In this document: positions 2,865-24,664 of the stretch, in pieces | Numbering within the stretch: position 1 is the first letter of the stretch | How the letters are laid out: every line of letters starts with the position of its first letter | NCBI GenBank assembly: GCA_021797815.1 | Contig: JAJZYZ010000016.1 | Coordinates: 1-44,041 of the forward strand | DNA: 44,041 nucleotides | Source of the DNA: Bacillota bacterium | GTDB taxonomy: Bacteria; Bacillota; Sulfobacillia; Sulfobacillales; JAIMBI01 | Direction: 5' to 3' | Position numbers and translations under genes: made by a program | Notes under the pieces: generated by a model | What the model saw: the letters and a program-made list of their open reading frames with translations, nothing else | Told to the model about the DNA's origin: nothing | The model's database searches: none

Positions 2865-3185
2865 TCAAGGATCGCCGGGCGAACTCTCGGTGGCAACTGC
2901 TGTTCGCTTAGTCAGTACTATCCCGTCGCGTTCCACGAGCTCGACCGGAGGAATTCCTAAAACCCTGACCGATTGGCCAGCGGGGAGATCAATGGAGTCC
3001 CAAACCATTACGATACTGGCGTTCTCCTCGTCGTAGAACCAGTCGGATAAAACATCCCAAATCCTGGCTCGAACGGCTGGGGATATCCGAGCCGCTGTGT
3101 AGACGCCGGGTCCCAACTCCAACATAGACGACGCTAGAAAGCCCCTTACGCGATTAGAAGCGTTCCGCGTCACCACTACGGTCAT
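2865..3185 (-). CDS. cas2: CRISPR adaptation protein Cas2, type I-E
   Basis: This 106-residue protein is the dimeric core subunit of the Cas1-Cas2 integrase that inserts new spacers at the leader-repeat junction. The N-terminus MTVVVTR followed by an RGFL segment and LELGPGVYTA matches the Cas2e family (E. coli Cas2 begins with a similar VVVT strand and has an AGVY motif). An IWDVL helix and a VMVWD strand follow, as in the family. The start codon lies 32 bp inside the end of cas1, and the family-like N-terminus argues for this start despite the long overlap. It is the last cas gene before the leader. No DnaQ-like extension is fused to it, unlike some I-E Cas2 proteins; a separate DnaQ-like gene sits at the far end of the operon. 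Confidence 0.96.
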   Translation of the reverse strand: MTVVVTRNASNRVRGFLASSMLELGPGVYTAARISPAVRARIWDVLSDWFYDEENASIVMVWDSIDLPAGQSVRVLGIPPVELVERDGIVLTKRTAVATESSPGDP

Positions 3186-4059
3186 GGACGTGCAGTAACT
3201 CCTTTATCTGCTCGATCATGGTCGGAATGAGTTTATGGCGTCGAAACCACTCAGCGGCGGCGAGACGAACCTCCCGTTCGAGGCTCTTGTGCGGGGACTT
3301 AAGGACAGTGGATGCCGCCGAAAAAGCCAGAGGCAGAGTGACACTCACGCGGAAGAGATCGGCAATGTCCAATGAAAACGCGTTACTCGATTCCTCGTGT
3401 ATGAAACCAAGGGGCGGCAATGCCCCGACAGCAGCGACGGCTATTTCCGCCGCCGATTCTACGAACGTCGCGGCATGATTGACAGCCTGGTTTGGAATGT
3501 CGGCGGCTTCGGGATTGTCACGGTCATACCGACGGCCTATCCACTCTATCCCATGCTGGCGCGCAAGAATACGGTACGACTCGCGGAGCCGCCCCCCCTC
3601 CATGCCGCGCATCTGGGCGATGTCGCGTTGAACGGGACGCTCCCCAAATCGGATGGCGTACATTTCTCTCGCCACGTCCAGCCGTAGACTTTCGTCCGCC
3701 CACAAGGTGGCATGGGCGCGTGCCACGTCCGACCGACCTTGCCCTATGGGTGGCGCCGTGTAGAGCTTAACCCCGCCATCGCCGACGGCGGCCAGCAACG
3801 TCCCATGGCGAGCTAGCAGGCGAAGAACATCGTGCGTCACGGTTGTGCCGGGCCCTATGAGGAGCATCGAGATTGTTTGATAGGGAATAGCATAAGTACC
3901 AGGGTCCAGCTGGTCGCTGGCACTGGCGACGAACTGTAAGGTACCGTCTTCTACGGACAGCCGGCCGCGGGACAACCATAGTAGCCCATGTCTGTCCACG
4001 TGGGGAATTCGGGAGGCGGCCAGCCCTAAGCGCCCACGAAACAGATGAGGGGAACTCAT
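3154..4059 (-). CDS. cas1: CRISPR adaptation endonuclease/integrase Cas1, type I-E
   Basis: This 301-residue metal-dependent integrase works with Cas2 to capture prespacers and join them to the array. The N-terminal beta-rich half is followed by the alpha-helical catalytic half. By comparison with E. coli Cas1 (E141, H208, D221), the likely metal ligands are E154 in RGMEG, H221 in GFIHEES and D231/D234 in SLDIADLF, all present. Length is usual for Cas1e. Its ATG overlaps the cas6e stop by 4 bp (ATGA type), which implies translational coupling, and its 3' end overlaps cas2. I see no frameshift, so the adaptation module looks functional. Confidence 0.98.
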   Translation of the reverse strand: MSSPHLFRGRLGLAASRIPHVDRHGLLWLSRGRLSVEDGTLQFVASASDQLDPGTYAIPYQTISMLLIGPGTTVTHDVLRLLARHGTLLAAVGDGGVKLYTAPPIGQGRSDVARAHATLWADESLRLDVAREMYAIRFGERPVQRDIAQMRGMEGGRLRESYRILARQHGIEWIGRRYDRDNPEAADIPNQAVNHAATFVESAAEIAVAAVGALPPLGFIHEESSNAFSLDIADLFRVSVTLPLAFSAASTVLKSPHKSLEREVRLAAAEWFRRHKLIPTMIEQIKELLHVHDRSGDAERF

Positions 4060-4787
4060 CGGGGCGCACGCAGGAGCAGCATTCCGTATCCGAACGCCCG
4101 ATGACGCCCCACGCCTCTGAGCAGCAGGGTGCGAAATACGTCCGGATTTTGGACGGTCAACCGTCCTCGAAACAAAGCCTGGGGCCTAACGATGGTGTTC
4201 TGGCGACGCCCCGTAGAACCCGCCTGATCTTTTCGAACTTGGTGAACGAAGCGGAATCCCTCAAGATTCGCCTCGTCTAATAAGACGCCGTCGCCCTCTT
4301 CCAACTGGGTGCGGATCCAGTCTTTGTAGACTTGGGTTCTGTCAAGTGTGCCCGGTTCAGCATGATCTGCGCGCATCAGAAAGACGTCCTTCTCGACTCG
4401 CGGATTGGACCGGCGCCCAACGGGGCAGCAGATAACCTCGAACCCCAGCTGACGGCCAGCCCCGAAATCTGGCATCACCTTGCTCGCGATATCGGAGCGG
4501 TTCGGGGTAACGGTCGCAACCATCGGAGAAGCATAGTTTCGCATTTGCTCCTGAAGGGCTTCGGCCCCGTGCCCGCTGTACGCGAGTACGCGGGTGGGGC
4601 GGTGACCGTCCACCAACAGCCGCCAGGGGTAGGGTGCTAAGTCGCCAAAGGCTGCCTTCATCCACGCATGTGTCGTGTAGCCAAGATCTTCGTCACGCGC
4701 TGCTGCCTGCAGACTCTGCACTTTGGCGAACCGTAGTAGCGCCGCCGTGTCGATAAGTATCTCGACCATGTATAGCTCACCCATCAC
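4056..4787 (-). CDS. cas6e: crRNA-processing endoribonuclease Cas6e (CasE/Cse3)
   Basis: This 243-residue RNase cuts the repeat RNA at the base of its stem and stays bound as part of Cascade. It has the double ferredoxin-like layout with the glycine-rich signature near the C-terminus (GVGRHRAFGYGMLLL), typical of Cas6e. A histidine at residue 40 in the TTHAWMKAAF helix is in the place of the catalytic His of E. coli CasE (H20). The first ATG overlaps cas5e by 4 bp; an internal Met at residue 7 (MVEILID) resembles the usual family N-terminus and could be the real start. Its natural substrate is the stem-loop of the array in this window. Confidence 0.96.
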   Translation of the reverse strand: MMGELYMVEILIDTAALLRFAKVQSLQAAARDEDLGYTTHAWMKAAFGDLAPYPWRLLVDGHRPTRVLAYSGHGAEALQEQMRNYASPMVATVTPNRSDIASKVMPDFGAGRQLGFEVICCPVGRRSNPRVEKDVFLMRADHAEPGTLDRTQVYKDWIRTQLEEGDGVLLDEANLEGFRFVHQVRKDQAGSTGRRQNTIVRPQALFRGRLTVQNPDVFRTLLLRGVGRHRAFGYGMLLLRAPR

Positions 4788-5521
4788 TGCTGACCATCCA
4801 CAGCTATGAGCCCCTCACTTCTCCAACGGCTTCCGGCCATGAGCTGGTTTCGCCAGTCACGCAGATCATATACTGGGCGCCCGGACCCTGATTGTTGCGT
4901 GCCGTCGGCCGGCCAACATGCCTCCAGTTGGCCGGAATGGACACGTCGACGACCCGCCCGATCCCACGCGCCGACACTGCGAAGAATGTCGAGCAGGTTG
5001 GGCCCGCTCACCAGGGGTGTAGTGGGGTCAAGCAAGGGCCGGGCTGGTACGCAACTCTTACGCCCCAAAAATAGCGGCCGTTTCGGATGTCTTAGTGCCT
5101 GTCCCAAGTGTTCCAGGCTTGGCCAGTCATCAGAATCTAACGCTACAGCTATGGTCATCAGGCCATCTGCCCAGTAGTGCCGGAACCGCTGCGAGGTTCC
5201 TGCGGTCGCCTCTCCTTTCCCCCTTTGCTCCGGCTTGCCCCGAGTAGTCCAACCTGCTTCCTTCATCGAGTCCTGTCCGAGGTCGACCGTCTGATAATCA
5301 AGCAGTGGCTGAGGGGCTACGTCCCATCGTGCCGCGTACTTGACACGACTCTGCAGGCCTTCGAGCTCACGGGAGTCTCCGTGGGATAAACCGAGGGCGT
5401 TGGCGAACAATCCAGTCAACATCGCCTGACCAGGAAACCGATCAGTAAAGCCGTGCTGATCGACGACCACACCGCCGAAACTCATCATCGGGGCGTCCAC
5501 GCGAAGGATTAGAGCCTCCAT
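4784..5521 (-). CDS. cas5e: Cascade subunit Cas5e (CasD)
   Basis: This 245-residue RAMP protein caps the crRNA 5' handle in Cascade. The N-terminal strand MEALILRVDAPMMSFGG, the segment RFPGQAMLTGLFANALG and the late motif RPLFLGRKSCVPARPLL are hallmarks of Cas5e. Its ATG shares one base with the TGA of cas7e (TGATG), so the two are tightly coupled. In this subtype Cas5 is non-catalytic, and repeat cleavage is done by Cas6e. Length is normal. Confidence 0.97.
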   Translation of the reverse strand: MEALILRVDAPMMSFGGVVVDQHGFTDRFPGQAMLTGLFANALGLSHGDSRELEGLQSRVKYAARWDVAPQPLLDYQTVDLGQDSMKEAGWTTRGKPEQRGKGEATAGTSQRFRHYWADGLMTIAVALDSDDWPSLEHLGQALRHPKRPLFLGRKSCVPARPLLDPTTPLVSGPNLLDILRSVGAWDRAGRRRVHSGQLEACWPADGTQQSGSGRPVYDLRDWRNQLMAGSRWRSEGLIAVDGQQ

Positions 5522-6696
5522 CAGCTACGCCCCAGGGCCGTTTCCAACGACTCGACGATGGCGGTAGCCAGGGGCTGCCGTTCCCCCATGCCCGGCCAGT
5601 CATAGGTGGTAGCCACGCGGCGCAGCTCTGCGGTCGGGCCATACATGCTGTCCATAGCAGAAATGTATTGGGCCAGCGCACCAACCGATGACTGCATGAC
5701 GTCACCCGTGCCGGAAACGGGTCGCAAGAAGGCATTGGCGAGGCTTCGCGGCTGAGAGGTACCCACTTCAAGAACCACGCAATCAGCGCGCGCGTACGGG
5801 GCCGTCGCCCCGAGTTTGGCTCCAGGCGTGACCTCTGCTATCGCGTGAACCAGCAGCTCGAGGAGGCGTCGGGCGGGGAGCAGGTCCTGTGCCTGCCATG
5901 CATTGGAGTCGGTGCCCGAAAGATTGCTCACCAAGAGCGGGACGTCTACCACGACATAGCCGTAGAACACGCCGGCTCCAAGCTCCATATCGTTTGCATG
6001 AGCGGCGCCGGTCTCCTCGAGCCGTGCCAGGTCATCCACCACTGTGAAGAAGTCGACTTCCGTATCGAGGGCATGGGTGGTAAAGGCATGGGCAACATGC
6101 ACCGGGGCATCAACCCGAGCCAGTATGTCCGAGGTCACAAAACGACCGAACATCGCTCCCTCAAATCCCACCATGGGATCTGCCGCTCCAGCAGCCCTCA
6201 TCAATGCGGCCAGGTTGGCCCGATGCTCCTTTTTCTTTAACGTCTCGTCCAGATGGGCAATCCCAAGCTCTAAGGTCTCCTTGTGCGAGGCCTCCTCAAT
6301 CAGATGAACGAAATAGTCGATCTCCGGTTTGCCAAATAGTATGGGCTGCCGCATGGCCAACCCTTCCTCCAAGGGTTTCTTGTCCCCCGTGGACATGAAA
6401 AGATTCTTCGCCAACGTCTGTATGAGCGCCTCGGCGGCCGCAGAGTCGAGTCCGTCCTCTTCGAGCCGCGTCTTCACGATGCGATCAAAAACGTGCCGGG
6501 TACGAACCCCCGATGGGAGGCCGAGTTCCTGGTGAACCATCCACGTGCGCCAGTGCCTTTTTTGGCTCTGGCTGGAGATGCGGAGCCTCGGAGCACTGCC
6601 AAACGAGATACGTTTGGCCAAGCCGGCATCGTCGCGATTCAACAGCGTCGCATGATAGCTGGTCAGAAAGTGAATCTGTAAGAACACATCCCTCAC
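5521..6696 (-). CDS. cas7e: Cascade backbone subunit Cas7e (CasC/Cse4)
   Basis: This 391-residue RAMP protein polymerises along the spacer part of the crRNA to form the Cascade backbone, six copies in E. coli. Recognisable segments are the N-terminal IHFLTSYHATLLNRDD with RISSQSQKRHWR, then MVGFEGAMFGRFVTSD, VAHAFTTHALDTEVDFFTVVDD, and GAGVFYGYVVVDVPLLVSNL. All are family-typical and in the expected order. The gene starts 1 bp inside the end of cse2 territory (4-bp overlap, 6693-6696) and ends in a TGATG junction with cas5e. No defects are seen. Confidence 0.97.
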   Translation of the reverse strand: MRDVFLQIHFLTSYHATLLNRDDAGLAKRISFGSAPRLRISSQSQKRHWRTWMVHQELGLPSGVRTRHVFDRIVKTRLEEDGLDSAAAEALIQTLAKNLFMSTGDKKPLEEGLAMRQPILFGKPEIDYFVHLIEEASHKETLELGIAHLDETLKKKEHRANLAALMRAAGAADPMVGFEGAMFGRFVTSDILARVDAPVHVAHAFTTHALDTEVDFFTVVDDLARLEETGAAHANDMELGAGVFYGYVVVDVPLLVSNLSGTDSNAWQAQDLLPARRLLELLVHAIAEVTPGAKLGATAPYARADCVVLEVGTSQPRSLANAFLRPVSGTGDVMQSSVGALAQYISAMDSMYGPTAELRRVATTYDWPGMGERQPLATAIVESLETALGRS

Positions 6697-7166
6697 CCTT
6701 TCGTAACAGTGTGATAGAAGTCGGAAGCAATGAGCCGACGCAGTTGTTCACGCGCAGATGCGTCGTGGGTTAGGACCAGGCGAGCCGCATCCGCCCAGTT
6801 TACCGACCGCCCTTTGGCGGCGAGAAAGCGCGCCATGCGGATTACCAAAGTGCGGAGGACCGGCCCTTCGGCCGCTAGCAAGCGCTCCAATCGCGCTTCT
6901 GAGTACTGAAGATCGGCCAGGCCACGGCCGAGAGGATGGTGGGGATCATGGCCGCCAGGGCTGAGAAGCGCCAGCCCACCCACCACCGTGACCCAATCGT
7001 CGACGGATTCGGAACCGCGGTCCCACTCGTCCGGTAGGAATCGCATGGCAAAGCGGTAGAACGCCACCGGAATGCTTCGATCTGGATTGAGCCGACGGAG
7101 GCCCGCCAACTCTCCCGGGGTAGCGGCTGAGCTGGACAGATAGGCGGAAGCTCGGCCTACCACCAC
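6693..7166 (-). CDS. cse2: Cascade small subunit Cse2 (Cas11e/CasB)
   Basis: This 157-residue all-helical protein forms the Cascade belly dimer that stabilises the R-loop. Evidence is position between cas8e and cas7e, size, and helical segments with the GELAGLRRLNPDRS and AFYRFAMRFLP patterns seen in Cse2. The start is uncertain. The frame is open upstream to 7202 without an ATG, so GTG at 7164-7166 (or the adjoining GTG at 7161) is the best standard choice, although no good ribosome-binding site precedes it. The 22-bp gap after cas8e is the only real gap in the operon downstream of cas3. Confidence 0.9.
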   Translation of the reverse strand: MVVGRASAYLSSSAATPGELAGLRRLNPDRSIPVAFYRFAMRFLPDEWDRGSESVDDWVTVVGGLALLSPGGHDPHHPLGRGLADLQYSEARLERLLAAEGPVLRTLVIRMARFLAAKGRSVNWADAARLVLTHDASAREQLRRLIASDFYHTVTKG

Positions 7167-7188
7167 CGCCAGCGAAGTGCGCTCTATG

Positions 7189-8757
7189 TCAGACGTCTTG
7201 TCTCATCTCCTTTCTCATCCACGGAAAGAATCGGGGGCTGTGCAGGATTCCGAAGAAGGTCCGTTCAGCCTCAACTTGCGCGCGATAGGCTCGTCCGGCG
7301 CGGTGGGGCCAGCCCACTTCAACGTCGTGGAGCACGCTCAGGGCATGACTAGTTAGTTGCTCGACCCACTGGGTCAGGGCGTCCTGCTCGTTGTCGTCGT
7401 CGGCATGGTCCCAGACCCACGGGAAATAGTCCGCTCGCCATCGTTGTTCGAAGGCGCGGTCGGCACGGATCCACCACGCCCCTGTCGCCGTTCGGTCCAT
7501 AACCACCGTGGCGGGCCCGCCTTCCAGGTACACAAACACGGCACGTCGAAGGGCCTGGGTCGTCTTCGACGCGTAGTCGAGTCCAGCCTTGCTGAGTGAT
7601 GTCAGGTGTTGACGCCTCTCCCTGCCTCCAAAAAGTGTGGGAACCACCTGAGGCGGGATGCGAACCGTTTCCGCGTAAAATCCTTCCGTCTTCCCCTGTC
7701 CTCGGACCAGAACCGAGGCCAGCAACCACATCTCACTTCGCGCCCAGTCACTTCCTGGACGCTGCAAAGCAGATAGACCGAGGTCGTCACCAAATACCAG
7801 GCGCCGCATCACGTCTGCGGTGAGACCCCTCGGTGAGACCGTGAGGGCCTTGGCCGTGGCCTCCTTACTATCCGCAGATCCCAGCTCAGTCGGGAGCCAG
7901 GGATCGCCCAGCACGCCCAATAGTTGTTTAGCGTCGATGCGGTCGTTTTGGCAGGACACATCTTCTGCCCAGATTTGCTCCCCGTCACTCCGCAGGCGAA
8001 CACGCCGGCACACTTCTATGAAGCACGGGTCCAGCGCTGTCAAAGGTAAGGGTGTCACCCCGTCCCAGGGAACCGTCCAAAGAAGAACCAGGCCATCAGA
8101 GTCGTAATGATACGGAGCTGCGAGCAGCTCTTGGCGGTGAGCCAAAAGCCGCTCCACGGCGTCGATCCATCGACGGCCCCAACGAAAACTCTGGACGAGT
8201 TCCACCACCAGACGATTGCCGAACCCACTGTTCATGCGGGAGATGCCGCGATTGCCGGCGCCGAGATACCCGCTCATTGTTTGAAGGCTAACTAGGGCGT
8301 AAACCCAGTCATCCGGCTGCGCCCGCGTTGCCCGTGCAGCCTTAACGTCGTGATTCTTTGACGTCACCAGAAGGTCGAGCGCGTCGGGAGTGACCGCCTT
8401 CACTTTCAGACGCCCGATGTCACTGACGGGTAGCGGGGGCTGCATGAAGGCGGCGAGTCGCGGATTAGGACTAACGAGCGCCCAGGCGTCTAGAGTGTCG
8501 CCGGCCAACTCGCTCAATGCGGCCTCCCAGAACTGGGAGCGCTGCACAGCGCTCGTCTTTCCATGCCGGGCTAATAGGGCTGCGCCTAGGTAACACAGAA
8601 AGATGTGCCAGGCATCTTCCTGGTGGCGCTGTAGGGCGCCATAGGTGTCAAGCTGGTCTTGCCCCAGCGATTCCAAAAGGTCTGGCAAGGTGAGCCGCTG
8701 GCTCTGTCCGGCCAGTTCCACGCGAAAGATCGGGTCGGTCAAAAGATTCGCATTCAT
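7189..8757 (-). CDS. cas8e: Cascade large subunit Cas8e (Cse1/CasA)
   Basis: This 522-residue large subunit recognises the PAM, opens the DNA target and recruits Cas3. The opening (NLLTDPIFRVEL, then LTLPDLLESLG) and the HQEDAWHIFLCYLGAALL helix are characteristic of Cse1. The segment SGYLGAGNRGISRMNSGFGNR corresponds to the conserved glycine-rich middle of the family. The gene overlaps cas3 by 4 bp (8754-8757). Length fits the family (about 500 residues). PAM preference cannot be read from the sequence but can be compared with the spacer-end bias in the array. Confidence 0.97.
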   Translation of the reverse strand: MNANLLTDPIFRVELAGQSQRLTLPDLLESLGQDQLDTYGALQRHQEDAWHIFLCYLGAALLARHGKTSAVQRSQFWEAALSELAGDTLDAWALVSPNPRLAAFMQPPLPVSDIGRLKVKAVTPDALDLLVTSKNHDVKAARATRAQPDDWVYALVSLQTMSGYLGAGNRGISRMNSGFGNRLVVELVQSFRWGRRWIDAVERLLAHRQELLAAPYHYDSDGLVLLWTVPWDGVTPLPLTALDPCFIEVCRRVRLRSDGEQIWAEDVSCQNDRIDAKQLLGVLGDPWLPTELGSADSKEATAKALTVSPRGLTADVMRRLVFGDDLGLSALQRPGSDWARSEMWLLASVLVRGQGKTEGFYAETVRIPPQVVPTLFGGRERRQHLTSLSKAGLDYASKTTQALRRAVFVYLEGGPATVVMDRTATGAWWIRADRAFEQRWRADYFPWVWDHADDDNEQDALTQWVEQLTSHALSVLHDVEVGWPHRAGRAYRAQVEAERTFFGILHSPRFFPWMRKEMRQDV

Positions 8758-11402
8758 GCGCTCGGTGTCTCCACTTCCAGGCCAAATCGGGTGTACCGAT
8801 ACGTTCGATCTCCAAAAGCAAACCGGATGGCGGTCCTGTCTTCGTCCAGAACGGTAGCAGGAAGGGTCTGGTCCCGGGGTGCCATGAATCCTGGTATGAG
8901 CATTTCCGTGACCGTTTGCCCAAAGGGACTGATTACGGGTCGGCTCAACGGGACGCTCAGAGTATCTAAACCAAGGCGCGTTGTGACCCGTTGTCCCAGT
9001 TCCCGGAACGCCACCGTGTGGAACGGTTCGTCAAACCCTAGAATCACGTGAGAGGCCGTAACCGACAGCGCGAGTTCTTTGCCTTCTACCCGGGCTCCGT
9101 GGTTCTTCCAACGTTCTTCGGTTAGCCCACCAAGCGCATCGGGATGGGTAGTACCCTCGACCCACAGCCGATTCTCTGAAGGAACTCGCATCAACTGTCG
9201 CTCGGACACCATCTGTCGCGTAAGTTCGAGAACCCGCAGATCTTCGTATACGCTTCCTAGCCCCACCTGTGTCCAGGGGGCTTGAGCCCGTCCCGATTTG
9301 TCGAGAGCGCTGCTCATATCCTCTGGGGTTGTTAGGACCACGCATCGAGGATCCGACAATCCGGACGGGCGTACTCGGCCGGCATGTCGATGCAGGCGTC
9401 CGATGCGCTGCAGCAGCACGTCGGCCGGAGCGAGGTCCGTGACCAGGAAATCGGCGTCCAGATCCAGGCTTTGTTCGAGGGTCTGCGTGCCGATCACAAG
9501 AGCCGGTCCGTCAGGTCCTCTTGCTCCGAACCGAGACACGAGCACACGATCCATGACGGCCCGGTCGGCCCGGCTGAACCTCCCGTGGTGTGGGCACGCT
9601 AGGCCGTTGACTTGGTAGATCCAGTCGGAGGAGATGAGGGTGCTCTCCTCGACGGCGCGAAGCAATGCGATCGCCCGGGCCACCGTGTTCATAACGACCA
9701 GTACCCGCGCGCCAGCCTGCAAGGGACGCTCCAGAACCTCGCACACGCGCTCAGGGATAAACGCCCAGGGCTCCGTCTCCAAGGCGATGTGCCGATCCAC
9801 GACCGTTTCAGAAACGGGCAAAGACGTACCGTCGCGGAAGGTTAGTGCCGGATACGAGGCGTGGATGGCCTGGTCTAGAGGTGCAGGAGTGCTCGGCGGC
9901 TTGACATAACGGGACTTAGCAAGGCTCCCCAGTGTCGCTGAAAGGAGCAACGCGTACCCGTCGATGCTCAAATGATGGTCAAGGAGGCGTTCCAAAAGTG
10001 CCGTCATGTAAACATCGGACGCGTGCACCTCGTCCACCACCAGCAGGTGACGGTCGACACAGACCGATCGCAAGTGGGCATGGTTGACTTGCAGCACCGA
10101 CAGCAAGCCCTGGTCGATTGTCCCGACCACTACGGTTCCCGCCAAAAAGCGCTTAGGCCCTTCAGCCGCCCAAACCCGCTCGTTCCGCCACTGGTCCGAC
10201 TCAAGGTCCATATGCGAGTCTTCAACGGCCGCCAAGAGCGTTGACGGGTCGAGACCGTCGACTTGGGAGTACCCGGGCGTGGCGAGCACGGTGACAGGGC
10301 GAGTTAGCGGATCGGGGAACCAGCGCACTATGGTGTCGTTGACCCGGTCATACATAGCCTGCGCCGCGACACGAGTAGGCAGGGCAAAAAACAAGCCATC
10401 AACCAAGTTAGCTCGGAACAGGCGATACCACCAGTTGAGCGCAGCTTCTGTCTTGCCAGATCCTGTTTCTGCTTCTGCAATGAGGAGGTGGGCGTTTGCC
10501 GTCTCTATCGGCAAGGAGTCGAGGGCCGCCTGCAGAGGCCTTGGCGGAGAAGCATAGGGGAAGCGGTCGCGAAACGTGTCGAGGTTGTGGAGACTCACAA
10601 ATTGCCACAGAGTCCGGGGGTCGAGTCCGACAACCCGGAGGATCGCCGGAGCCGCGCTGCGATCATGCGTCACTCGCTGCTCGAATGACACATTCTCGAT
10701 AGGGAACCAGCGAGCGTTAGACCCGAGCCAGTCCGCCAAAGATACCAGGCCCGCGAATCGATGATGAAGCTGGGGGGATTTTGGCAGGGCCGGTCCGCGC
10801 TCAAGAACTCGGGGAAAGGCTCTGCGGCCCCACTCAAGAATGGCGGACACAGCGTCCATAGGGTCTCGGGTGCCATCTGACACCCACCACTCCGTACGCG
10901 CCTGCCAGTACGTGCCGCTCATTTCGCCGTTAAAGCGTACCGGTCGCCCGTGGTGAGAAAACGTGGCCAAGAGGTAGCAGTACGCGTCCACGTCGTCGGC
11001 AAACCAGTCCCCAATTGTGGGTCCCAGCACATCAAGGAAGCGCCGCTGCAAGTCCGGGTCGGACACTTCGGCGTCTAAGAGGGGGGCCAGTTCGCGAACG
11101 TGTCCAGCGCGCGGATACTCGGGAGATAGCACCTTGCGCTGAAAACCTAAATTGGCCTTGCCGGCGTCATGCAACATTGCCAGCAGGGCCAGGCGATCCA
11201 CGTCAAAGTCCGTAATCGGGCGCTCACTGCTTTCGACGAGGGCTCGGTGCATGGCGGGCATTTCCGATAGAGCCCGAAACATCACACCCACATCCAGGCA
11301 ATGTGCGGCCAGAGGCAAGGATTTCTGCTGCCCTTCTATATACTTGCCCCAGAACGCTAATCCCGGGTGATTACTCATTTTTGAGTCAGCCATTCCCCTC
11401 AC
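8754..11402 (-). CDS. cas3: CRISPR effector nuclease-helicase Cas3, type I
   Basis: This 882-residue protein degrades DNA marked by Cascade. The N-terminal HD nuclease has H34, the pair H78-D79 in MLHDAGKAN, H150-H151 in TFSHHGRP and D224 in SLADW, a full metal-binding set. The SF2 helicase part shows Walker A at about 311-318 (AETGSGKT), DEVH at 457-460, and a later LLSATLG motif III. HD domain and helicase are fused, as usual in I-E. The longest frame begins at GTG 11402; ATG codons at residues 4 and 9 are alternatives, and none has an ideally spaced ribosome-binding site. It is the first cas gene of the minus-strand operon. Confidence 0.98.
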   Translation of the reverse strand: MRGMADSKMSNHPGLAFWGKYIEGQQKSLPLAAHCLDVGVMFRALSEMPAMHRALVESSERPITDFDVDRLALLAMLHDAGKANLGFQRKVLSPEYPRAGHVRELAPLLDAEVSDPDLQRRFLDVLGPTIGDWFADDVDAYCYLLATFSHHGRPVRFNGEMSGTYWQARTEWWVSDGTRDPMDAVSAILEWGRRAFPRVLERGPALPKSPQLHHRFAGLVSLADWLGSNARWFPIENVSFEQRVTHDRSAAPAILRVVGLDPRTLWQFVSLHNLDTFRDRFPYASPPRPLQAALDSLPIETANAHLLIAEAETGSGKTEAALNWWYRLFRANLVDGLFFALPTRVAAQAMYDRVNDTIVRWFPDPLTRPVTVLATPGYSQVDGLDPSTLLAAVEDSHMDLESDQWRNERVWAAEGPKRFLAGTVVVGTIDQGLLSVLQVNHAHLRSVCVDRHLLVVDEVHASDVYMTALLERLLDHHLSIDGYALLLSATLGSLAKSRYVKPPSTPAPLDQAIHASYPALTFRDGTSLPVSETVVDRHIALETEPWAFIPERVCEVLERPLQAGARVLVVMNTVARAIALLRAVEESTLISSDWIYQVNGLACPHHGRFSRADRAVMDRVLVSRFGARGPDGPALVIGTQTLEQSLDLDADFLVTDLAPADVLLQRIGRLHRHAGRVRPSGLSDPRCVVLTTPEDMSSALDKSGRAQAPWTQVGLGSVYEDLRVLELTRQMVSERQLMRVPSENRLWVEGTTHPDALGGLTEERWKNHGARVEGKELALSVTASHVILGFDEPFHTVAFRELGQRVTTRLGLDTLSVPLSRPVISPFGQTVTEMLIPGFMAPRDQTLPATVLDEDRTAIRFAFGDRTYRYTRFGLEVETPSA

Positions 11403-21157: not shown

Positions 21158-23596
21158 GTGGGCTACGACGCGGGAACCATCGAGGCAAAGTGGCGGAAAC
21201 GCTGGGCGGACGAAGGCGTGGGCGAGGTGGATCTCGACCGCGCTCCGCGGCCTTTTTACAATTTGCTGATGTTCCCCTATCCGTCGGCCGAGGGCCTGCA
21301 CATCGGCAATGTGTTTGCCTTCACGGGCGTCGACGTCCACGGGCGCTACAAGGCGCTTTGCGGTCACGACGTCTTTGAACCGATCGGGTTTGACGCGTTT
21401 GGCATGCACAGTGAGAACTTTGCCCTCAAGGTGAACAAGCATCCCATGGGGCTCGTGGCGGAGAACGTGCGTCATTTTCGTGAGCAGCTCCAGCGCATGG
21501 AGGGGCGGTTCGCGTGGTCGCATGTGGTTGACACAACCACCCCCGAGTACTACCGGTTCACGCAGTGGATTTTCCTGCAGATGTTCAAGCGGGGTCTCGC
21601 GGAGCGGCGCATGGCGCCTGTCAACTGGTGCCCGTCCTGCCTGACCGTGCTGGCTGACGAGCAGGTGATACAAGGAGCCTGCGAGCGTTGCGGAACGCCC
21701 GTGGTGACGCGAAACCTCGAGCAGTGGTTCCTGAAGATCACACGCTATGCGGACCGGCTCCTCGACCATCTGCCGGATCTTGACTGGTCGGAGGTGGTGA
21801 AGACCGCGCAGCGGAACTGGATCGGCCGCAGCGAGGGGCTCGAGATGGCGTTTCCGGTGGTGGATCACGAAGGGTCAGAAGTGGCGTTCTTCACGACCCG
21901 TCCCGACACCATCTATGGCGCTTCTTTCATTGTCCTCGCGCCCGAGCATCCCCTGCTGCCGGACATCGTGGCGCCGGAACGGCGGGCTATGGTGGATGCT
22001 TACGTTCGCGAGGCCGTAAATCGGCGCGACACCGACCGGATGGACATGACCCGGGAGAAGACCGGTGTAGACACCGGCGCCCGGGCACGCAATCTGGCTA
22101 CGGGCGAGGAGATTCCCATCTGGGTCGCGGACTACGTTCTTGGCACCTACGGCACCGGCGCCATTATGGCGGTGCCGGCGCACGACCAGCGCGACTTCGA
22201 GTTTGCCCGGCGATTTGGCCTGCCGGTACCGGTCGTGGTGACCCCGGAGAGCAGGCTTTCCGACCCGCTGCCCGAGGCGTTTTCCGGTGAAGGCACCCTC
22301 GTTCATTCGGGACCCTTTGACGGTCTTTCCAGCGAGGACGCGAGAGAGGCCGTCATCGACTGGGCCCGCCGAGAGGGACTGGGCCAACGACGTGTCACCT
22401 ATCGCCTGCGTGACTGGCTCATATCGCGGCAGCGCTACTGGGGTCCGCCCATTCCCCTTATCTATTGCGACGGCTGCGGCATCGTGCCGGTCCCGGAGGA
22501 GGACCTGCCGGTGGTGCTGCCCTATGTGGAGAATTTCCGGCCCACCGGAACGGGGGTGTCTCCGCTGGCGGCGGTGCCCGAGTTCGTAAATACCCCGTGT
22601 CCGCGCTGCGGGCGGCCGGCGCGCAGGGAAACTGACGTGTCGGACAACTTTCTCGATTCAGCCTGGTACTACCTGCGCTACCCCTCTACCGACCGGAACG
22701 ACGTCATCGTGGACCCGGACCGCACGGCCCGGTGGCTCCCGGTTGACATGTACATCGGCGGCAAGGAGCACTCGGTGCTGCATCTCCTGTACACACGCTT
22801 TGTGTGCATGGTGCTGAACGAGATTGGCGTCATCGACTTTGACGAGCCGTTCAAGCAGTTTCGGGCACACGGGATGATGATCATGAACGGATCCAAGATG
22901 TCGAAGTCGCGGGGCAACGTGGTGAACCCCGACCACCTCTTTGACCGCTACGGAGCCGACACCACCCGCATGTACCTGATGTTCATGGGTCCCTACCAGG
23001 AGGGCGCAGACTTTTCGGACAAGGGCATCCGCGGCATCGAGCGGTTCCTTAACCGGGTGTGGGATCTGGTCACGGGCACGTCCCTAAAGAGAAACACCGA
23101 GGGTGTGACAGAGGCGGCGCAGCGCATTCGCCACCGCACAATCGCCCGGGTGACCCGCGACATTGCGGCCCTTCACTACAACACCGCCGTAGCCGCCCTG
23201 ATGGAGTACGTAAACGCCCTCAGTCAGAGCGGGGCCACCGCCGAGGATGTGGAGACCCTGCTGGTCCTCCTGTGGCCGTTCACGCCCGCCATGGCCGACG
23301 AGCTGTGGGAGTTCACCGGCCATGCGGCGGGGATCTGGAAGGCATCCTGGCCGGTCGCGGACGAGCGCTACCTGCAGGATGCCGAGGTGGAGATACCGAT
23401 CCAGGTGAACGGCCGCGTGCGCGACCGCATGACCGTCCCGGTGGACCTACCCGAGGAGGACGCCGTCGCCCTGGCCATGGACCGCGACCGGATCAAGGCG
23501 GCGCTGTCGGGCCCGCCGACGCGCGTCGTCTACGTGCCCGGCCGGACGCTCAACATCGTCGTGCTGTCGGCGGCGGGAGCCGAAGCGTCTCCCTAA
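21158..23596 (+). CDS. leuS: Leucyl-tRNA synthetase
   Basis: This 812-residue class I synthetase charges tRNA-Leu. The signature region reads HIGN at 48-51 rather than HIGH, followed by GRYKALCGHDVF and GFDAFGMHSENFAL. The zinc module NWCPSCLTVLADEQV...CERCG follows, then the editing domain with TTRPDTIYG and GTGAIMAVPAHDQRDFEFA, and KMSKS at 580-584. The C-terminal anticodon-binding part ends with a VNGRVRDR segment as usual. The GTG start has AGGAGG 9-10 bp upstream. The 250-bp region before it shows no T-box core. The gene ends exactly where the convergent thioredoxin-like gene ends. Confidence 0.97.
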   Translation: MGYDAGTIEAKWRKRWADEGVGEVDLDRAPRPFYNLLMFPYPSAEGLHIGNVFAFTGVDVHGRYKALCGHDVFEPIGFDAFGMHSENFALKVNKHPMGLVAENVRHFREQLQRMEGRFAWSHVVDTTTPEYYRFTQWIFLQMFKRGLAERRMAPVNWCPSCLTVLADEQVIQGACERCGTPVVTRNLEQWFLKITRYADRLLDHLPDLDWSEVVKTAQRNWIGRSEGLEMAFPVVDHEGSEVAFFTTRPDTIYGASFIVLAPEHPLLPDIVAPERRAMVDAYVREAVNRRDTDRMDMTREKTGVDTGARARNLATGEEIPIWVADYVLGTYGTGAIMAVPAHDQRDFEFARRFGLPVPVVVTPESRLSDPLPEAFSGEGTLVHSGPFDGLSSEDAREAVIDWARREGLGQRRVTYRLRDWLISRQRYWGPPIPLIYCDGCGIVPVPEEDLPVVLPYVENFRPTGTGVSPLAAVPEFVNTPCPRCGRPARRETDVSDNFLDSAWYYLRYPSTDRNDVIVDPDRTARWLPVDMYIGGKEHSVLHLLYTRFVCMVLNEIGVIDFDEPFKQFRAHGMMIMNGSKMSKSRGNVVNPDHLFDRYGADTTRMYLMFMGPYQEGADFSDKGIRGIERFLNRVWDLVTGTSLKRNTEGVTEAAQRIRHRTIARVTRDIAALHYNTAVAALMEYVNALSQSGATAEDVETLLVLLWPFTPAMADELWEFTGHAAGIWKASWPVADERYLQDAEVEIPIQVNGRVRDRMTVPVDLPEEDAVALAMDRDRIKAALSGPPTRVVYVPGRTLNIVVLSAAGAEASP

Positions 23597-23932
23597 CTAC
23601 AGCTTCCGGGGCTTCTTGTCGCCACGGGCGAAGGCCGCGAGCTCCTCTTCGGACCGGAAGCCCACGAGACGGCCGGTCTCTTCGCCGTTCGCGAACCGGA
23701 TAGTGGTGGGAATACCGACCACGCGATAACGCGACGCCAACTCCGGTTCCTCATCGGTGTCGACGTGCACCATCACGGCCGCGCCGCCCACTTCGTCTGC
23801 TGCCTGTTCCGCGACTGGACCCAGCCGCCGACAGTGCGGTCACCAGTTGGCGCCGAAAACTACGACGGTGGGCGTCGTTGCCCGCAGTACGACCTCGTCA
23901 AAAGTGACCGTGTCCACTTCCGAAAGAACCAT
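23597..23932 (-). CDS. Thioredoxin-like selenoprotein candidate (in-frame TGA in active site, UPHC)
   Basis: Reading from ATG 23930-23932 to TAG at 23597 gives 112 codons in one frame, interrupted only by TGA at 23840-23842 (codon 31). The context is W30-TGA31-P32-H33-C34, so the TGA replaces the nucleophilic Cys of a thioredoxin CxxC site. Before it come a beta strand (TPTVVVFGAN); after it RRLGP, the strand AAVMVHVD, and cis-Pro75 in VGIPTT, a complete thioredoxin fold of 111 residues. AAGGAGG sits 5 bp before the ATG. A hairpin with loop GGUC follows the TGA at SECIS spacing. I infer selenocysteine insertion; an inactivating mutation or sequencing error is the alternative. CPHC is the DsbA-type motif, so this may be a strongly oxidising redox protein. 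SelA/B/C/D genes are not in the window. Confidence 0.8.
23811..23828 (-). promoter_or_regulatory. Bacterial SECIS-like hairpin in thioredoxin-like mRNA
   Basis: On the minus strand GCGGCTG (23828-23822) pairs with CAGTCGC (23817-23811), seven pairs including one G-U, closing the loop GGTC (23821-23818). Eighteen bases separate the TGA from the loop. As I recall it, E. coli fdhF has the same 18-nt spacing and the same GGUC loop, whose G23 and U24 contact SelB. The bulged U17 of fdhF is not present here; that position is a paired G. Confidence 0.65.
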
Positions 23933-24103: not shown

Positions 24104-24664
24104 GTGTTCCAGCGAAACGGCGTGAGCATCCGGCCGATGGAGCTTGATGACATCGACCGTCTCTACGATTGGCACCGCGACCTCGAAATCGAGTCCGGGG
24201 CCGGATGGAGCGCGTGGATGTCGCGGGCCCGCTTCGTTCATCGTTACGAAGAGATGGTGCGCGAGCCGCCCGAGGACTTCCTGCTGTTTGGGATCGAGTA
24301 TGAAGGGGATCTCGTGGGATATGTCGAGCTGGCGGAGATCAGTCGGATCGCACGCCGGGCCGCAGTCGGCTTCGTGGTGGGCGACCGCGGCCGGCGTCGG
24401 CGCGGCATCGCCACCGACGCCCTCATCCTGACCCTCGACTACGGCTTCGCCCTGGAGGACCTTGAGCGCATCTACGCGGAGGTGTACACGTTCAACGCCG
24501 CCTCCGCCGCCCTGGTCGAGAAAGTCGGCTTCCGGCACGAGGGAACGCTCCGACAGCACGAGGTGCACCAGGGGCGGCGCACCGACCTCGCCATCTATGG
24601 CATGCTGCGCGACGAGTTCTACGAACGGTACCCGACCGTTCTGCCGAATCTCGGCCGGGAGTAG
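24104..24664 (+). CDS. GNAT-family N-acetyltransferase, RimJ/RimL-like
   Basis: This 186-residue acetyl-CoA-dependent acyltransferase has an N-terminal VSIRPMELDDIDRLYDWHRD, typical of the RimJ/RimL group. The acetyl-CoA pyrophosphate-binding loop is DRGRRRRGIATDA, and the late strand-helix YTFNAASAALVEKVGFRHEGTLRQ is characteristic. The substrate may be a protein N-terminus, an aminoglycoside-like molecule or an amino acid. A GTG start is used. It is divergent from the thioredoxin-like gene, with a 171-bp region between them. Confidence 0.9.
   Translation: MFQRNGVSIRPMELDDIDRLYDWHRDLEIESGAGWSAWMSRARFVHRYEEMVREPPEDFLLFGIEYEGDLVGYVELAEISRIARRAAVGFVVGDRGRRRRGIATDALILTLDYGFALEDLERIYAEVYTFNAASAALVEKVGFRHEGTLRQHEVHQGRRTDLAIYGMLRDEFYERYPTVLPNLGRE

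What the first reader, a model, noticed from the sequence alone, without database searches (positions are those of the whole stretch)
23811..23842. SECIS-like hairpin with the fdhF loop and spacing
Exactly 18 nt after the TGA there is a GGUC tetraloop on a seven-pair stem (23811-23828). To my knowledge the E. coli fdhF SECIS also has its GGUC loop 18 nt after UGA, placing the SelB-contacting G and U at the same positions. The bulged U17 of fdhF is lacking. A chance match in both loop sequence and register, just behind an active-site TGA, is unlikely.
Basis: partly seen in the sequence, partly recalled or inferred. Interest (0 to 1): 0.72.

Follow-up and report, generated by a model that had tools for sequence, protein, structure and literature searches.

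The report
Selenocysteine signal in a bacterial thioredoxin
A small hairpin just behind an in-frame UGA codon most likely tells the ribosome to insert selenocysteine into a thioredoxin of an uncultured Bacillota bacterium; it is a new, well supported example of a known kind of signal.

Summary
On the minus strand a UGA (23842-23840) lies in the active site of a 111-aa thioredoxin (WUPHC). Eighteen nt later comes a GGUC tetraloop on a 7-bp stem. E. coli fdhF, fetched here, has GGUC at the same offset. The hairpin is most likely a bacterial SECIS element.

Sixteen UGA-thioredoxins were found in 154 genomes of the class (E <= 1e-24). Twelve keep a 6-bp core stem and GG(U/G)C in register. Of 34 conserved degenerate codon columns in these 12, the four most frozen are those forming loop and inner stem. 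None of 25 Cys-thioredoxins has GG there. All 22 UGA-FdhA genes examined carry GG(U/G)C at the same offset.

The genome has SelB and a UGA-containing SelD. SelA and tRNA-Sec were not found; in a same-genus genome both lie just beyond points where this genome's contigs end, so assembly gaps are likely.

Against: four UGA-thioredoxins of one sister genus have lost the hairpin, covariation alone is weak, SelD elements mostly differ in loop, and nothing is shown in vivo.

New member of a known kind (bSECIS; Sec-thioredoxin).

The parts
23597..23932 (-). Sec-thioredoxin gene, 111 aa with U31, active site WUPHC
   Evidence: Read through TGA; Pfam Thioredoxin PF00085 E 2e-22, NCBIfam thioredoxin E 6e-21, below that model's cut-off; a GGAGG ribosome-binding-site-like stretch 5 nt before the ATG; dN/dS about 0.15 downstream of the UGA between G000 and G001
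23840..23842 (-). in-frame TGA, read as selenocysteine at the first position of the CxxC motif
   Evidence: TGA at this codon in 16 genomes, this one included
23811..23828 (-). SECIS apical hairpin GCGGCUG-GGUC-CAGUCGC; six-pair core 23827-23822 with 23817-23812
   Evidence: RNAalifold on the 12 homologues with the GG loop returns exactly the six-pair core without being told
23818..23821 (-). GGUC apical loop at +19 to +22 after the UGA
   Evidence: GG(U/G)C in 12 of 16 homologues and in 22 of 22 UGA-FdhA genes examined; same in E. coli fdhF
23802..23837 (-). possible lower stem that extends the hairpin towards the UGA
   Evidence: minimum-energy fold of this sequence only; not in the alignment fold, so uncertain

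Best explanation
The hairpin is a bacterial SECIS element. SelB, carrying GTP and Sec-tRNA(Sec), binds its GGUC loop while the ribosome has the UGA in its A site, and delivers selenocysteine in place of termination. The product is a thioredoxin whose attacking residue of the CxxC motif is selenocysteine (UPHC). Shown: position, register, conservation of stem and loop with UGA in 12 of 16 homologues, synonymous freezing, absence from the Cys genes examined, and SelB and SelD in the genome. Inferred: SelB binding, Sec insertion, and that SelA and tRNA-Sec exist in unassembled gaps.
For: (1) Same loop and offset as in E. coli fdhF. (2) 16 UGA-thioredoxins among 154 genomes of the class at E <= 1e-24 (15 of them already among the 61 genomes); 12 of 16 keep the six-pair core and GG(U/G)C loop. 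(3) In those 12, of 34 degenerate codon columns with a residue conserved in at least 9, the four most frozen are +6 to +9 (CTG/TTG, GGT, CCA, GTC); CCA is 12/12 although it is 7.9% of Pro codons in five genes of this genome. (4) 0 of 25 distinct Cys-thioredoxin genes have GG at +19, and the Cys relative in G117, of the same family as UGA-bearing G118, does not have this hairpin. (5) 22 of 22 UGA-FdhA genes examined, unrelated proteins, have GG(U/G)C at +19 to +22; in 20 of the 22 the minimum-energy fold puts these letters in a 5-nt loop at +19 to +23. (6) SelB with C-terminal winged helix and a UGA-containing SelD are in the genome. (7) dN/dS downstream of the UGA is about 0.15 between G000 and G001.
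Against: SelA and tRNA-Sec were not found in this genome; 14 sub-threshold tRNA-Sec matches were listed, and the eight fetched are ordinary Ser, Arg and Gly tRNAs. In the same-genus genome both genes lie next to points where this genome's contigs end. Four homologues of one genus (G003-G006) keep the UGA but have loop GAUC and two broken core pairs, and their alignment folds into something else. Covariation is thin: two pairs with changes on both sides, 38 of 500 shuffles reach the score in the 12 and 44 of 500 in the 16. SelD elements of the group mostly differ in loop. In 2 of 22 FdhA genes the fold pairs the first G of the loop. The bulged U of fdhF is missing. Rfam has no matching family above noise.
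Confidence: 0.93

Rival explanations
1. The UGA is a real stop or a sequencing error in a decayed or ordinary Cys-thioredoxin gene, and the hairpin is a chance product of GC-rich coding sequence.
For: Loose SECIS-like hairpins are common: 231 of 2146 TGAs. SelA and tRNA-Sec were not found in this assembly.
Against: TGA at the same codon in 16 genomes; low dN/dS downstream of it; synonymous codons most frozen at the hairpin.
Confidence: 0.03
2. UGA is read through, but without SelB: ordinary suppression or insertion of another residue such as Trp or Cys, with the hairpin serving only to slow the ribosome.
For: SelA and tRNA-Sec are not seen in the assembly; four homologues keep UGA without the hairpin.
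Against: UGA replaces the nucleophilic Cys of a redox motif, as in the UxxC selenoproteins listed in PMC13188914 (passages seen); the same-genus genome has SelA and a tRNA-Sec with anticodon UCA; the loop matches that of UGA-FdhA genes in the same group.
Confidence: 0.03
3. The codon freezing reflects another constraint, such as an overlapping gene or a regulatory site, not a SECIS.
For: One search shows constraint but does not name its cause.
Against: The frozen part coincides with loop and stem; G-U/A-U and C-G/U-A exchanges keep pairing; the same loop letters and offset occur in unrelated FdhA genes and in E. coli fdhF.
Confidence: 0.01

Closest known systems
E. coli fdhF SECIS element
   Same: 18 nt from UGA to a GGUC tetraloop; G and U at the positions that PMC8659212 calls G23 and U24 (passages seen; that its count starts at the U of UGA is my recollection)
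   Different: no bulged U in the stem (U17 in that numbering); continuous 6-7 bp upper stem; different protein
Hairpins behind the UGA of formate dehydrogenases (FdhA) in the same group (for example L181-L192)
   Same: GG(U/G)C at +19 to +22 in 22 of 22 examined
   Different: stem sequence differs; in 20 of 22 the fold has a 5-nt loop (GGUCU or GGGCU) in place of a tetraloop
Sec-containing thioredoxin family (PF00085, UxxC), listed in the review PMC13188914 (passages seen)
   Same: thioredoxin fold, Sec at the first position of the CxxC motif
   Different: motif UPHC followed by RRLGPVA; the search for the word UPHC with selenocysteine returned no paper
Sec-FDH and PrxU reported in Sulfobacillus (PMC4378227, PMC7409299; passages seen)
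   Same: selenoproteins in acidophilic Bacillota, possibly the same order
   Different: the passages seen mention no Sec-thioredoxin; that this order includes Sulfobacillus is my recollection, not a test

Membership tests
bacterial SECIS element (consensus model given in PMC13188914, section 5 read) | apical loop of 3-9 nt and upper stem of 4-16 bp | tested here: met
   4-nt loop, 7 bp
bacterial SECIS element (consensus model given in PMC13188914, section 5 read) | G in the first two loop positions | tested here: met
   GGUC
bacterial SECIS element (consensus model given in PMC13188914, section 5 read) | 16-37 nt between UGA and apical loop | tested here: met
   18 nt
bacterial SECIS element (consensus model given in PMC13188914, section 5 read) | MFE at most -7.5 kcal/mol | tested here: met
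   -14.0 for a 29-nt stretch, -20.7 for 46 nt
bacterial SECIS element (consensus model given in PMC13188914, section 5 read) | conserved with UGA in homologues (my own added criterion) | tested here: met
   12 of 16; 4 of 16, all one genus, not
bacterial SECIS element (consensus model given in PMC13188914, section 5 read) | SelB binding and Sec insertion | not testable with these tools
   needs the bench
E. coli fdhF-type SECIS | bulged U in the upper stem (U17) | tested here: not met
   continuous stem in this sequence
Sec-decoding genome | SelB and SelD present | tested here: met
Sec-decoding genome | SelA and tRNA-Sec present | tested here: inconclusive
   not found in this assembly; contig C126 starts inside the ALAD (hemB) gene that stands beside selA in G001, and contig C1 ends about 0.8 kb before the tRNA-Sec position
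thioredoxin (PF00085) | profile match with CxxC and the later Ile-Pro motif | tested here: met
   E 2e-22; residues 31 (U), P32, C34, I74 and P75 invariant in the 7 of 15 homologues then held that were aligned; residue 33 is His in 6 and Tyr in 1

The most novel reading that the evidence does not exclude
The sister genus g3 (G003-G006) still makes this selenothioredoxin although its hairpin has been lost (GAUC loop, two broken core pairs), while its FdhA genes keep GGUC at +19 in the three genomes examined: one SelB would then accept two unlike signals, or this UGA would be decoded with no canonical SECIS.
Probability: 0.2. Interest if true: 0.55.

Novelty: new member of a known kind. Interest (0 to 1): 0.38.

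Why it matters
It adds a thioredoxin to the selenoproteins of this group; a reading by the standard code stops at the UGA (the ORF list, table 11, at least 80 aa, does not give the gene). The group offers a clean test of SECIS rules: two unrelated proteins, FdhA and thioredoxin, share the same loop letters in the same register, as in E. coli, while one genus has lost the loop but kept the UGA.

Tried and rejected
Chance hairpin: rejected by loop and register counts, Cys controls and codon freezing. Loose hairpin models alone are useless in this GC-rich genome (231 of 2146 TGAs; 3 of 25 Cys genes).

Loss of Sec decoding in this species: considered because SelA and tRNA-Sec were missing. In the same-genus genome G001 selA lies next to the ALAD gene (hemB), and this genome's contig C126 begins inside that gene; contig C1 (39,888 bases) ends about 0.8 kb short of the tRNA-Sec position. 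Assembly gaps are therefore likelier, but not proven.

Covariation as main proof: tried and found too weak by itself (44 of 500 and 38 of 500 shuffles reach the observed score).

An alternative element in genus g3: the alignment fold of its four members gives a long-range structure with no double changes; not convincing.

Rfam: one hit, to an unrelated family far below its cut-off. Paper searches: UPHC with selenocysteine, no paper; selenocysteine with Thermaerobacter, none; selenoprotein with Sulfobacillus, two papers seen as a listing only; selenocysteine with Sulfobacillus, four papers, of which I saw passages of two. Searches (20 of 369 listed; 10 of 102 listed) showed nothing on this thioredoxin in the rows listed.

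Not done: a survey of all other selenoprotein families in this genome. Besides the thioredoxin only SelD and FdhA were checked here; the one FdhA match of this genome has no TGA inside. No structure was predicted.

Errors and limits of mine: one search was out of frame and replaced; the script stopped after its fdhF part, and its control was rerun. In one search, of 29 Cys loci given, 25 were counted, 3 were duplicates and L166 was missed by my pattern; L166 is shown. In one search, 25 of 30 SelD loci given were printed. Of the rows with a TGA, which I count by eye as 40, 22 were examined, chosen by me, not at random. The codon columns are counted from the UGA without gaps, so columns beyond an insertion or deletion are out of register for some rows. 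One search used E <= 1e-24, so more distant UGA members may have been missed.

Full report
What is there. On the minus strand a gene runs from ATG 23932 to TAG 23597 and codes 111 residues if its one in-frame TGA (23842-23840) is read as selenocysteine...FGANWUPHCRRLGPVAEQ.... It is a thioredoxin (Pfam PF00085, E 2e-22; the best PDB relatives by sequence are thioredoxin-domain proteins). The UGA replaces the first Cys of the CxxC motif. The gene ends directly at the end of leucyl-tRNA synthetase on the other strand (21158-23596), and a GNAT acetyltransferase (24104-24664) diverges upstream.

The hairpin. After the UGA come 18 nt, then GGUC on a seven-pair stem, 23828-23811. The E. coli fdhF gene was fetched and shows the same 18 nt and GGUC. 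In the window and two 20-kb stretches of the same genome 1 of 2146 TGAs has a GGNN tetraloop there with 6 or more pairs: this one. A further sample of 602 TGAs has one, with 6 bp and not GGUC.

Homologues. A protein search of 61 genomes found 15 with a TGA at the same codon; an alignment search of 154 genomes of the class at E <= 1e-24 found these and one more, G118, from another family. Twelve of the 16 have the six-pair core and GG(U/G)C. One core pair changes from C-G to U-A in G013 and to U-G in G025, another is A-U in eight and G-U in four, and the outermost pair is A-U in G118 but broken in four of the 12. RNAalifold on the 12 returns just the six-pair core. The covariation score exceeds most but not all shuffles (38 of 500 reach it), so it is supporting evidence only.

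Synonymous freezing. Among codon columns with one residue in at least 9 of the 12, 34 are degenerate. Ranked by how often two sequences share the codon, the top four are +8 (CCA 12/12), +9 (GTC 11/11), +7 (GGT 11, GGG 1) and +6 (CTG 10, TTG 2), the codons of the loop and inner stem. The Pro codon directly after the UGA, also 12/12 Pro, uses all four codons. In five genes of this genome CCA is 7.9% of Pro and GGT 11.3% of Gly codons (all). This points to selection on the RNA.

Controls. Of 25 distinct Cys-thioredoxin genes none has GG at +19, and one has a stem of 6 or more pairs there, with another loop. The Cys relative in G117, same family as G118, does not have this hairpin, though another is predicted nearer the codon. 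In UGA-containing FdhA genes of the group GGUC (20) or GGGC (2) stands at +19 to +22 in 22 of 22 examined; in 20 of these the fold shows a 5-nt loop at +19 to +23, and in two (L181, L116) it pairs the first G. One search lists about 40 such genes by my count, so 22 are a part. SelD is UGA-containing in 50 of the 51 rows. Of its elements, 16 of 25 printed and 5 of 6 of the SelD genes have a 3-nt loop starting GG at +18; four of the 25 and one of the six have the loop at +21; this genome and G001 have CGGGU at +17 to +21, which puts GGU at +19 to +21; three of the 25 are none of these. So the loop consensus is not the same for all selenoprotein genes of the group.

Exception. The four genomes of genus g3 (G003-G006) keep the UGA, but read GAUC in the loop and break two core pairs. 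Their downstream coding sequence is still under purifying selection (dN/dS near 0.13 for G003 against G006), and their FdhA genes, seen in three of the four, have GGUC at +19 (L181-L183). Whether their thioredoxin UGA is decoded, and how, is open.

Machinery. SelB is present with GTPase, barrel and winged-helix domains, aligning over residues 5-621 of 625 with the SelB chain of PDB 5lzb. SelD is present and is itself a UGA gene. SelA and tRNA-Sec were not found in this genome (the eight fetched sub-threshold tRNA-Sec matches are other tRNAs), but both are in the same-genus genome G001, which is the MAG of record JAKATP01, Bacillota bacterium YP2.bin78, judged by the identical 68,128-base contig length. 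In G001 selA sits beside the ALAD gene hemB; this genome's contig C126 begins inside hemB, and the search with that region returned no match over selA. In G001 the tRNA-Sec (anticodon UCA) lies at contig ends; this genome's contig C1 ends at the position 0.8 kb before it. Both absences are thus probably assembly gaps.

Literature. The bacterial SECIS model used for the membership test is in section 5 of PMC13188914 (that section read), whose table lists thioredoxin UxxC among selenoproteins (passages). PMC8659212 gives U17, G23 and U24 as key fdhF positions (passages). PMC4378227 reports putative Sec-FDH in all its Sulfobacillus genomes and PMC7409299 a Sec peroxiredoxin (passages). PMC1794560 lists Sec-thioredoxin in several other bacteria (passages). 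The listings showed no paper on this thioredoxin; two searches showed only part of their hits. That the order here is that of Sulfobacillus is my recollection from the size of one complete genome, not a result.

Verdict. Most likely a true bacterial SECIS of a Sec-thioredoxin, confidence 0.93; in kind well known, so interest is moderate. The genus that keeps the UGA and loses the element is the part worth a specialist's time.

Noticed in passing
window about 30-2800 and 3154-11402: A CRISPR array (45 copies reported, 30 of them displayed, at a 61-nt period, repeat GGTCGATCCCCGCTCACGCGGGGGAGCC-like) beside type I-E cas genes: Cas1e, Cas6e, Cas5e, Cas7e, Cas11e, Cas8e, Cas3e (Cas2 not tested). 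Of the copies displayed, those at 762 and 1189 are identical over 93 nt, spacer included.
   Followed up: partly
L026-L029 (G003-G006), TGA at the thioredoxin active site: UGA kept in four genomes of one genus although the SECIS hairpin is broken and the loop is GAUC.
   Followed up: partly
L018 1531 and L095 1531: SelD of this genus is itself a UGA gene with a 7-bp stem and CGGGU loop, an element of another shape than in thioredoxin, with GGU still at +19 to +21.
   Followed up: partly
L139 8233-8326 and L140 30-123 (G001): The tRNA-Sec gene of the same-genus MAG stands at the end of one contig and again at the start of another, as if the assembly broke on it.
   Followed up: no
G000 whole genome: The Sec-thioredoxin query finds only one match at E <= 1e-6 in this genome, while each of the 14 other genomes with the UGA form in that search shows at least one more; a Cys form may be missing or unassembled here.
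   Followed up: no
L167 (G118) and L166 (G117): In another family of the class one genome has the UGA form with the same hairpin and a relative has a Cys form without it, a candidate Sec/Cys exchange.
   Followed up: partly
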